Shown here: positions 39,043 through 42,785 of the stretch, piece by piece
Position numbering within the stretch: position 1 is the first letter of the stretch
How the letters are laid out: the number at the start of each line of letters is the position of its first letter
Assembly: GCA_019135865.1 (NCBI GenBank)
Contig: JAGVVD010000050.1
Coordinates: 1 to 42,785, forward strand
DNA length: 42,785 nucleotides
Reading direction: 5' to 3'
Source of the DNA: Elusimicrobiota bacterium
GTDB lineage: Bacteria; Elusimicrobiota; Elusimicrobia; Elusimicrobiales; UBA9959
Program-made: the position numbers and the translations under genes
The notes under the pieces: generated by a model
What the model was told of the DNA's origin: nothing
Database searches by the model: none
What the model saw: the letters and a program-made list of their open reading frames with translations, nothing else

Positions 39043-39855
39043 TCAGTCAGTGACCGTAATTCCGCGTGTCTCGCAGAAATCGCGCAGGTCGGCGGGCAGC
39101 GGCGCGGTGAAGACGCGCTTCAGCCCCGCCCCGCGCATGTCTATCTCGGCGCAATGAAGCGCCTGCCGCGGCAGCAGCAGCTTCTCCTCCAGGGCCGGCG
39201 TCCAGCCGGCGTCGAGGAAATCCAGGTAGCAGCGGGCGTCCGGCCCGTATACCTTGTCCCCCGCCAGGCTGTGCCCCAGCCATTGCGCGTGCGCCCTGAT
39301 CTGGTGCATGCGGCCCGTTCCGGTGACGACCCGCGCCAGCGTGAATCCGCCCCCTGTGGCGAGCGGGGTGAAGCGCGTCACCGCGGGCTGGCCGTCCGGC
39401 CTTACGCCGGCCTTGCAGTACACCGGGCTCTCTTCGTCGTCGCCCAGGGGCTGGTCCACCGTGACCGGACCGTTGAGTTCCCCAGTCATTATCGCAAGAT
39501 AAGCTTTGCCCACCTGCCGCCGCTGCATGGCGGTCTGCAGGCGTCCCGCCACCTCGGGATTCTTGGCGAACACCACCACGCCGCTGGTCTCGCGGTCGAG
39601 CCGGAAGACCAGGTGCGACGCGGCCAGGCCGAAGCGCTCGCGCACGGCGCCCGCCAGGCTGGACCAGGGCCCGTCCTTGGAAGGATGGCAGACCAGGTTC
39701 CCCGGCTTGTTCACGACTATGACCTGGTCGTCATGATGGACGATCCGGCCGTCGAGTTCTTCCGGTGTTATCCGGCGCACATTCACCAGCCTGGGCGGGC
39801 GCGGCCAGGGACAGGCCCGGCGCGGGTTGAATGCGGGGCGGTCGGGTGTTTTCAT
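39043..39855 (-). CDS. RluD/RluA-family RNA pseudouridine synthase
   Basis: Isomerises uridines in rRNA or tRNA, 270 residues. The catalytic motif is SHLVFRLDRETSGVVVFAK (RLDxxTSG, catalytic Asp). It is followed by KAYLAIMTGELNGPVTVDQP and GRMHQIRAHAQWLGHSLAGD (HQIRxHxxxxGHPIxGD-like). There is no S4 domain; the N-terminal residues read ITPEELDGRIVHHDDQVIVV. The ATG at 39855 overlaps the stop of the broken peptidase fragment upstream (ATGA). Further upstream codons belong to that fragment's antiphase and are not used. Target site unknown. Confidence 0.9.
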   Translation of the reverse strand: MKTPDRPAFNPRRACPWPRPPRLVNVRRITPEELDGRIVHHDDQVIVVNKPGNLVCHPSKDGPWSSLAGAVRERFGLAASHLVFRLDRETSGVVVFAKNPEVAGRLQTAMQRRQVGKAYLAIMTGELNGPVTVDQPLGDDEESPVYCKAGVRPDGQPAVTRFTPLATGGGFTLARVVTGTGRMHQIRAHAQWLGHSLAGDKVYGPDARCYLDFLDAGWTPALEEKLLLPRQALHCAEIDMRGAGLKRVFTAPLPADLRDFCETRGITVTD

Positions 39856-40088
39856 GCGCGGTTGATGACCTTGTGCGCGAGTTTCGGCAAAGATTTGCGC
39901 CAATCGGCTTCAAACTGTTTCCGGTCGAGTTTCAGAAATCCCGGGATGTCCCCGGTGTATGATCCCGTCAACACGCGCTTAAGAGCGGCGCGTCCCAGGC
40001 ATCCGCCGGGTCAGCCGGTCTTTCCATTGCCCGGTGACGTAGACGGCCAGGCCTTCGCTCCACCACTGCGGACTTACCGTTGCTCCCT
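39852..40088 (-). pseudogene. Remnant of a zinc peptidase (peptidase-MA-like), C-terminal part, frameshifted
   Basis: On the minus strand, 40088-39979 reads VSPQWWSEGLAVYVTGQWKD then stops. A second frame (about 39985-39852) continues LTGSYTGDIPGFLKLDRKQF ... LAHKVINRA and ends overlapping the pseudouridine-synthase ATG. The WSEGLAVY segment is the third-zinc-ligand region of peptidase-MA-like proteins. The HExxH half is missing, replaced at about 40090 by unrelated low-G+C DNA, and at least one frameshift separates the two pieces. The gene therefore looks truncated by an insertion or rearrangement. Confidence 0.6.
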
Positions 40089-40376
40089 AGTAAGGTGGGA
40101 TACTATCCTGTCGTATCCCCGTCTGTATTTCATCAATAATGACAGGAGTTTTGGACAGTATTCGCTTTCTCTATTTGACGACACCTGTTTTCTTTTATGC
40201 ATGTATTATTAAACCTCAATGTTAGTATAGCAGGCTTCCCGCTGGGCGTCACTAGGCGGGTGACATCTCATCACTCGATGCGTGAGTGCTGGTTGCTCAT
40301 GGGGACTCATAATCTGGGGTATTTCGACTTCGAGGGAAAAAGATTTGAGCCCATCGGGAATCCCTTTGGGCTCAAA

Positions 40377-40424
40377 GTGTTACCTATGTATCCGGTATAA
40401 TGTGTTACCGATGTGTCCGGTATA
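40377..40424. mobile_element. Tandem terminal repeat of an insertion sequence (IS21/IS481-like end)
   Basis: Two 23-bp copies, 40377-40399 and 40402-40424, match except at two positions and have the form GTGTTACC-N-ATGT-N-TCCGGTATA. Repeated TGTTACCxATGTxTCCGG motifs are what I recall at the ends of IS21- and IS481-type elements. No transposase gene remains in the window, so this is a solitary end. Confidence 0.5.
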
Positions 40425-40738
40425 CACCTACACCTTTTAAATTTTGGGGTGAGTTTCAGTACGAAGTAATAACCTTCTTTGCGCAACATCCCGAGGAATC
40501 TTTATAACTTCCGCCTGGATCTGCGGTACGGGGAAGCTTATCCGCGAGATGCTTACCCGGCCGCCTGCGGCGGCCGTACAACGCAGAAAATTATTCCCCG
40601 CGCGCACTGCAACCGAATTGAACTCATATCTATACAGACTCTGCCCGCGCTCGCCAGTGGCTGCTGCCACTCGCGGCGCGGGCCTGTTCCTGATTTCTAT
40701 CTTAACTGACATTCCGGTGGCAGCAGATTAATTAAAAC

Positions 40739-40780
40739 ACCGCCCCGGCGTCCGCTTCGCGGCCGCCGCGGCGGTCTTTT
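40739..40780. terminator. Bidirectional terminator-like hairpin
   Basis: ACCGCCCCGGCG (from 40739) pairs with CGCCGCGGCGGT (ending 40775) around a short TTCG-containing loop, with one or two mismatches. It is followed on the plus strand by CTTTTCT and on the minus strand by GTTTTAATTAAT. It could end minus-strand transcripts from the 40917-41831 gene. Confidence 0.6.
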
Positions 40781-40830
40781 CTGTAAATTATCGCCGCCAC
40801 CGGCAGAGGCCGAAACGGACCATAAGGAAC

Positions 40831-40882
40831 GGGCCAGGGCGGTAGCTTCGGCCCCTGCTGGCCTCCGCCCCCGCCCTGGCCC
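40831..40882. repeat. 12-bp perfect inverted repeat
   Basis: GGGCCAGGGCGG (40831-40842) and CCGCCCTGGCCC (40871-40882) are exact reverse complements with a 28-nt GC-rich spacer. They lie 35 bp past the end of the downstream AT-rich gene. There is no T-tract. Confidence 0.6.
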
Positions 40883-40916: not shown

Positions 40917-41831
40917 TTAAAAAGTTCCCAATCGGTTAAGTAATTGAGAGGGTAAAATCTTTCTTAGTATAGATTCTGCATATCCATCTTTTGTAACGAA
41001 CAAATTTATATGCGGAATGTAGATAACCTGTCGAGTGTCAAATGCGTCGCCACCTTCTGGTGTCCTATATTGTCCAGCAATACAGTCACGTGCAATCTCA
41101 ATCAGATAGCGATGTGATAACCAACATCCTGTAGTTCTTAAAGATGTTGCTGGAATGCTTTCTATTTGGTCCGGGGATAAATTCTTGCTTATAAGATAAC
41201 GATAGGTGGCAATTGTTGCCCATTCATCTTTTAATGAGTCCACCCAAAAAAGGATTGACCTATCTGTCTTGGTCGGGATTTCTGCTAACAGTTGTTGTTC
41301 TGAAAAAGGATTTAAGCGTGTCTGGATACTAGTAAAATCAGTTATTGTGGCAGACTTCTTTATCTTTGCTAAATTACTTAGAACTGCAGCAAAAAACAAA
41401 ATCTCTTTGCGTTGCCCGTCTTTAAAACTCTGAATCGAATCTATCGTTGCCGCCGGAATCGGTTGATCTGCTTTCGTAATAACTTCAAGCCATTCTCTTG
41501 TCCAGGGCGAAGTCGGTTTGCATACTAAATCAGAAATAGGTATGGGTGCGGGGGCGATTCCTGCCATAAGGCACTTTATTTCATGTGTCTCAATGTTGTC
41601 TGCATCTGTAATGATTCTATCGGCAGCTTTTGAATGTAGGAAAAGTAGGCGATCTTTGCGAGAGAGCACATTTGTCATTAACAACAACTCTTGAAAATTA
41701 ATGGGAGTGATATGGATGTTTTGCAGTTGCGCTACTATATTGGTAGGCATTTTTGATTCCCGCCACTGATCAATTGCGGAGTTATCTGCAATAGATATTG
41801 ATACAGTTGCTAGGTTTTGAGGAGTCTGCAT
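40917..41831 (-). CDS. Hypothetical protein, possible PIN-like nuclease
   Basis: The 304-residue protein is encoded in low-G+C DNA. No family is recognised with certainty. The layout recalls PIN-like nucleases: an early strand with Asp (SISIADNSAIDQW), then ITPINFQELLLMTN with Glu at the position of the conserved acidic helix residue, and near the C-terminus DAFDTRQVIYIPHINLFVTK followed by DG. The last resembles the closing D..Q..Y......FVT.D pattern of PIN domains. The middle 130 residues would be an insertion. The ATG at 41831 lies 33 bp after the helicase fragment's stop, so the two were probably cotranscribed. Confidence 0.6.
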   Translation of the reverse strand: MQTPQNLATVSISIADNSAIDQWRESKMPTNIVAQLQNIHITPINFQELLLMTNVLSRKDRLLFLHSKAADRIITDADNIETHEIKCLMAGIAPAPIPISDLVCKPTSPWTREWLEVITKADQPIPAATIDSIQSFKDGQRKEILFFAAVLSNLAKIKKSATITDFTSIQTRLNPFSEQQLLAEIPTKTDRSILFWVDSLKDEWATIATYRYLISKNLSPDQIESIPATSLRTTGCWLSHRYLIEIARDCIAGQYRTPEGGDAFDTRQVIYIPHINLFVTKDGYAESILRKILPSQLLNRLGTF

Positions 41832-41864
41832 ATAAGTTGCCTATATTGCCAATATGAATGAATC

Positions 41865-42689
41865 TTAAATGATCCCAAGTTCTCCTGGACCAAGAAAACG
41901 TGATGGGCGATTTCTATAGTCAGAGTAATCTGTAAAATACATCAATATTCGTCGTGGACGTGTGATTGCGACATATAGTAGCCGGCGGCCTTCATCAATT
42001 TCGCACTCCGATTTCGCGCTTGAATGCGGAATTCTCCTTTCATGCAAATCAACAATAGCCACGGCATCGAATTCTCGACCTTTGGCTCGGTGCATTGTAA
42101 GCAGTTTAATGCTGTTGTCTGGGTTGGCGTAAAGACCTAAGTCATGGGTGGTTAAGTGTAATTGATTCGCTTTTTGCTTCCGTATATCGGCAATCATGTC
42201 TTCTGCGGACTGTGATAATATCCCTGCGGAAGATTTATTAAGGAACCCATCTCGGCAAAGTATATCTTCAAACCGTGATGAGGCAGAGCGTAGCCAGCCA
42301 ATTGCATCCGGATTGGAGCCTTTTATTTCCATCGCAGCATATAGCAGGGAAAGGACAGTAATTCGCCCTTTATATGAAAAGATGTTCTGTTCTCTGCCTG
42401 TTATTGAAAGTGTCAGGAAAAATAGTTCTTTCTCTGTTTGTCTGAGTAGTCTGGGTGTAGGGTTTTCGACATATGCGCAAATCTGCTCCGCTAAAAGCGA
42501 AAATAGGTGGCTGCGCTTGTAGGGACGTGCTCCAGGCCCGACTACGGGTATACCCAAATCCCTAAGTCCTCTGCTTATCGGTAGAAGAAAAAACCATGCG
42601 GGAGCCAGAATCGCTGCTTCTCCATAGGGGATTCCGAGAGCTTTGATTTTGGGAAGGAAGTTGTCAGTCAGTAAAAGGGTCGGGGTTGT
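41865..42689 (-). pseudogene. UvrD/Rep-type superfamily 1 helicase, C-terminal half only
   Basis: The open frame of 274 codons starts after a TAG at 42690-42692 and has no proper start. The first methionine-like codon is a TTG at 42557, but homologous sequence extends further upstream (IPYGEAAILAPAWFFLLPIS ... RGLRDLGIPVVGPGARPYKR). Motif V is TMHRAKGREFDAVAIVDLHE and motif VI EGRRLLYVAITRPRR, giving the 2A/2B half of a DNA helicase. Walker A, the DExQ box and motif III are absent. The gene is therefore truncated at about 42690 by rearrangement or a contig join. G+C is far below that of the chromosome. Confidence 0.75.
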
Positions 42690-42785
42690 CTAGACCAATT
42701 CTAGGCCATTGCTAAGGTTAAATCCTCTCCGACTCTGACCGCGTTTTCCGCTCTCTCCGTTTCTCCGAAGTAAACCTGCGCCGGT

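What the first reader, a model, noticed from the sequence alone, without database searches (positions are those of the whole stretch)
40917..42689. Low-G+C gene pair: helicase fragment plus possible PIN-like nuclease
The two adjacent minus-strand genes differ sharply in composition from the chromosome and are flanked by an IS end and a broken peptidase. A UvrD-type helicase beside a candidate nuclease recalls two-gene anti-phage modules (for example Gabija pairs a UvrD helicase with an OLD nuclease). The nuclease here is of another, unrecognised type, so this may be an undescribed system or a remnant of one.
Basis: partly seen in the sequence, partly recalled or inferred. Interest (0 to 1): 0.6.

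Follow-up and report, generated by a model that had tools for sequence, protein, structure and literature searches.

The report
Broken Gabija locus with orphan gene
The 'helicase fragment' is the back half of GajB, a protein of the well-known Gabija anti-phage system, cut off by a jumping gene; the 304-residue gene behind it is a real open frame with no detectable relatives, so this is a decayed known defence system plus an orphan, not a new two-gene system.

Summary
The sequence observation holds. Two minus-strand frames (G+C 0.40 and 0.45, against 0.63-0.68 for their neighbours) lie between a broken peptidase and an IS end. The helicase, however, is not merely like Gabija: it is Gabija. It matches PADLOC GajB at E 2.6e-95 over profile positions 317-587 of 589, and in 63 of 63 relatives with enough upstream sequence a gajA gene sits directly in front of gajB. 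In the window the N-terminal half of gajB is missing. The frame runs into 114 bp that also end another contig and that match the end of an IS3-like element in a related genome. No gajA is in the assembly. The retained piece lacks the Walker A, DEXQD and GajA-contact regions, so it cannot act as Gabija. The 304-aa ORF is far longer than chance gives, but no homologue or family match was found, and single-sequence AlphaFold failed (pLDDT 33). None of 66 related gajB loci carries a homologue. A PIN-like order of acidic motifs is present (0.2% of shuffles, post hoc) but could not be tested by homology or fold. Most likely: an IS-truncated, horizontally acquired Gabija remnant beside an orphan passenger. 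Most novel reading not excluded: an optional third Gabija effector.

The parts
41865..42671 (-). 3' part of gajB (Gabija UvrD-like helicase), about the last 270 of ~590 codons; N-terminal half missing, own C-terminus intact
   Evidence: PADLOC PDLC00130 E 2.6e-95, profile 317-587/589; 38-48% identity to GajB of 62 loci; gajA directly upstream in 63/63 relatives; 43 of 45 highly conserved columns kept
40917..41831 (-). 304-aa orphan ORF, 33 nt behind the gajB stop codon
   Evidence: ORF; longer than any of 300 random controls; no homologue
42672..42785 (-). end of an IS3-like (rve transposase) element that interrupts gajB; runs off the contig
   Evidence: 100% repeat of C20:1-114, where it also truncates a gene; terminus 83% identical over 41 bp to the end of an element with an rve transposase in L148
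40436..40882 (+). genus-specific intergenic repeat with terminator-like hairpins, marking the high/low G+C border
   Evidence: copies at 73-81% identity in own and three sister genomes; composition on both sides
40340..40423 (.). IS-terminus-like remnant: 16-bp palindrome and two 25-nt direct repeats, shared with the C31 copy
39852..40130 (-). relics of a peptidase gene, broken by deletions at the left border of the foreign tract
   Evidence: intact in sister species G119 (L118:3405-4145)

Best explanation
The pair is the leftover of a horizontally acquired Gabija locus. SHOWN: the helicase frame is the C-terminal half of gajB; an IS3-like element end abuts and truncates it; gajA and the gajB N-terminal half are absent from the assembled genome; the tract is low in G+C and no other of 340 genomes of the phylum carries this gajB type. 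INFERRED: the ancestral order was gajA-gajB-(304-aa gene); an IS insertion or IS-linked deletion removed or split off the front; the remaining piece is inert, because ATP binding (Walker A), the DEXQD box (both subdomain 1A) and the GajA contact (1B residues 147/150 in B. cereus GajB, PMC10781630) lie in the missing half. The 304-aa gene is most likely an independent passenger of the same foreign segment. If it acts at all, its best (weak) guess is a PIN-like nuclease or effector with a large insert.
For: PADLOC GajB E 2.6e-95; gajA PDLC00092 and gajB PDLC00130 together in the closest plasmid loci; gajA upstream in 63/63 relatives; no N-terminal gajB or gajA elsewhere in the genome (only other large SF1 helicases and one 22-bit ATPase hit); IS end shared with C20, and similar to the end of an rve element; low G+C and GC3; gajB type unique in the phylum; conserved columns kept, so truncation is probably recent; no homologue of the 304-aa protein at 66 gajB loci.
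Against: The contig ends inside the IS, so the rest of gajB-gajA could sit on an unassembled or unbinned contig beyond it. The short 33-nt gap and common strand would also fit co-transcription of the 304-aa gene with gajB.
Confidence: 0.87

Rival explanations
1. Three-gene Gabija variant: the 304-aa protein is an accessory effector (for example a PIN-like nuclease) belonging to this gajA-gajB operon; the whole operon is now broken.
For: Same strand, 33 nt behind gajB; other loci of this gajB type carry optional and variable third genes behind gajB, 70-150 nt away: TIR (L051, L074), CoiA-like nuclease (weak match, L047), PolB-type exonuclease (L058, similar 5' end in L075), DUF4365 (L070), C92/U49 peptidases (L007, L081); PIN-like motif order.
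Against: No homologue of the 304-aa protein at any of 66 gajB loci; only 26 of 66 have any same-strand ORF of 100 aa or more within 250 nt, and defence genes cluster in islands anyway.
Confidence: 0.12
2. Undescribed two-gene system: this helicase with the 304-aa PIN-like nuclease as its own partner.
For: Adjacency; PIN-like motif order D16..E48..D264/267..D284 in 41 of 20000 shuffles and 1 of 906 long ORFs.
Against: The helicase is GajB by profile and by synteny with gajA; the fragment ends exactly at an IS, so the two-gene look is a truncation product; no related helicase has such a neighbour.
Confidence: 0.02
3. Assembly effect: gajA-gajB is intact or IS-split in part of the population, and only this contig's end is misleading.
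For: Draft genome in 59 contigs; contig ends in a repeat; conserved residues still intact.
Against: The frame switches to the repeat at one point, as expected of a real insertion, and C20 shows the same element truncating another gene; no gajA or gajB N-terminus anywhere in the other 58 contigs.
Confidence: 0.08

Closest known systems
Gabija (GajA OLD-type nuclease + GajB UvrD-like helicase), PADLOC type PDLC00092/PDLC00130
   Same: Helicase fragment covers profile positions 317-587 of GajB PDLC00130; nearest relatives 44-47% identical, with gajA directly upstream
   Different: Here gajA and the GajB N-terminal half (ATPase motifs and GajA contact) are missing; gajB is cut by an IS; an extra orphan gene follows
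PIN-domain nucleases
   Same: Order of motifs: strand-D16-N-S, [IT]....E48, D264/D267 and LFVTxD284 near the C-terminus
   Different: No Pfam, NCBIfam, PADLOC or PHROG match even at E 10 and over 200 residues between motifs 2 and 3, far more than a plain PIN domain; fold not predicted

Membership tests
Gabija GajB | Sequence match to GajB profile | tested here: met
   PDLC00130 E 2.6e-95 over the retained half; tree of 65 GajB rows
Gabija GajB | gajA directly upstream | tested here: not met
   Lost or off the contig in the window; met in 63/63 relatives
Gabija GajB | Walker A and DEXQD box in subdomain 1A (PMC10781630) | tested here: not met
   Profile positions 1-316 absent: IS boundary at 42672; so a fragment of a member, not a working member
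PIN nuclease (304-aa protein) | Profile match to a PIN family | tested here: not met
   No PIN-family match at E 10 in four libraries, nor in pieces against Pfam; a negative that does not exclude a remote member
PIN nuclease (304-aa protein) | Conserved acidic residues in the PIN order | tested here: inconclusive
   Order present, 0.2% of shuffles, but the pattern was written after seeing the sequence and there are no homologues to test conservation
PIN nuclease (304-aa protein) | PIN fold | tested here: inconclusive
   Single-sequence AlphaFold2 pLDDT 32.7, pTM 0.19

The most novel reading that the evidence does not exclude
Gabija loci of the PDLC00130 type carry an optional, frequently exchanged third gene behind gajB (TIR, nuclease-like or peptidase in other genomes), and the 304-aa orphan is one such effector: a PIN-like nuclease with a large insert.
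Probability: 0.1. Interest if true: 0.5.

Novelty: new member of a known kind. Interest (0 to 1): 0.2.

Why it matters
It shows a known defence system being taken up and broken by an IS in a phylum where none of 339 other searched genomes has this GajB type, and it removes a false lead for a new helicase-nuclease system. The one open point of wider interest is whether Gabija operons of this type recruit variable third genes; the 66 loci gathered here make that testable.

Tried and rejected
Homologue searches for the 304-aa protein: genome contigs, plasmids and phages by tblastn, 340 genomes of the phylum, 50 genomes carrying related gajB (its E 0.05-0.5 hits: those read are unrelated proteins), viral contigs with whole and partial queries. 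A degenerate-codon scan for its C-terminal YIPHINLFVT-KD motif in the phylum and in viral contigs found only itself or unrelated proteins. Pfam on fragments and on a fragment pair with the middle left out: nothing meaningful. Single-sequence AlphaFold2: failed, so no fold search was run. Rfam on the region: nothing. Papers: no three-gene Gabija with a PIN protein found. Idea that the repeat 40436-40882 is a dedicated insertion site: rejected as general, since about half of its copies adjoin ordinary genes.

Full report
OBSERVATION. The window is the whole contig C17 of a 2.95-Mb draft genome. Its right end holds two minus-strand frames, 40917-41831 (304 aa) and a helicase frame from the stop at 41865 up to 42692. 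G+C is 0.40 and 0.45 with GC3 0.33 and 0.39, against GC3 0.80-0.87 in the next genes (RluA, GpsA, RNase R). In 300 random sequences of the same composition and length the longest open frame averaged 114 and never exceeded 200 codons, so the 304-codon frame is not chance. The left border carries relics of a peptidase gene that is intact in a sister species (L118:3405-4145). It is followed by an IS-terminus-like remnant and a genus-specific repeat.

THE HELICASE IS GajB. Pfam gives essentially UvrD_C. PADLOC gives GajB PDLC00130 at E 2.6e-95, covering profile positions 317-587 of 589. Relatives were gathered from plasmids and 62 genome loci. In 63 of 63 loci with at least 1.5 kb upstream a gajA-like frame lies directly before gajB, usually overlapping its open frame by a few bases; examples of the gajA match PDLC00092. 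The window row keeps 43 of 45 columns that are at least 95% conserved in the others, and its C-terminus is intact. In the tree it joins a group of rows from several phyla, with good support for the larger group only. No other of 340 genomes of the phylum has this GajB type, which with the composition points to horizontal gain.

HOW IT BROKE. From 42672 to the contig end (114 bp) the sequence is identical to the end of contig C20, where it also cuts a gene. A related genome has 83% identity over 41 bp of this terminus right at the end of a gene with rve and HTH_21 transposase domains (L148), so it is the end of an IS3-like element. Neither a gajB N-terminus nor a gajA is found elsewhere in the genome. 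Published structures place the Walker A motif and DEXQD box in the GajB ATPase core (subdomain 1A) and the GajA contact at residues 147 and 150 of subdomain 1B (PMC10781630). All lie in the missing half. Inference: the remnant cannot hydrolyse ATP or join GajA.

THE 304-AA PROTEIN. No match in Pfam, PADLOC, NCBIfam, PHROGs or PDB even at E 10, and no homologue in the plasmid, phage, viral and genome collections, 340 genomes of the phylum, or 50 genomes that carry related gajB. Collection scans need short exact peptide matches, so remote relatives can be missed. None of the 66 gajB loci carries a relative within the flanks held. Single-sequence AlphaFold2 failed (pLDDT 32.7). A PIN-like motif order (D16, E48, D264/D267, D284) is present; a pattern written for it occurs in 41 of 20000 shuffles and 1 of 906 long ORFs. 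The pattern was written after seeing the protein, so this is a hint, not a test.

A LEAD. Behind gajB, other loci of this type carry different third genes on the same strand 70-150 nt away: TIR domains (L051, L074), a weakly CoiA-like protein (L047), a PolB-type exonuclease (L058), DUF4365 (L070), C92 and U49 peptidases (L007, L081). Only 26 of 66 loci have any such frame, and defence genes cluster in islands, so this may be no more than neighbourhood. If it were systematic, the 304-aa gene would be one of a set of exchangeable Gabija companions.

VERDICT. Observation confirmed; interpretation partly supported. The pair is a decayed Gabija locus plus an orphan gene, not an undescribed helicase-nuclease module.

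Noticed in passing
window 40436-40882; L024:3126-3775; L140:1722-2024; L119:6177-6651; L138:5967-6150: A ~450-bp intergenic repeat of this genus with terminator-like hairpins. In about half of ten copies it sits where G+C drops from ~0.6 to 0.41-0.51, with foreign cargo on its right side only (here the Gabija remnant; C31: AlwI-type restriction-modification).
   Followed up: partly
L024:2126-6593 (own genome C31): Fic-domain protein, IS-end remnant, the same repeat, then a low-G+C N6/N4 DNA methyltransferase and an AlwI-type restriction endonuclease.
   Followed up: partly
L007, L047, L051, L058, L070, L074, L081 (just behind gajB): Variable genes directly behind gajB in PDLC00130-type Gabija loci: C92 peptidase, CoiA-like, TIR, PolB-type exonuclease, DUF4365, TIR, U49 (Lit-type) peptidase.
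   Followed up: partly
L083:7400-8900: In Sinorhizobium meliloti 4H41 the gajB open frame is only 410 codons and its C-terminal part continues in another frame, so this Gabija also looks broken.
   Followed up: no
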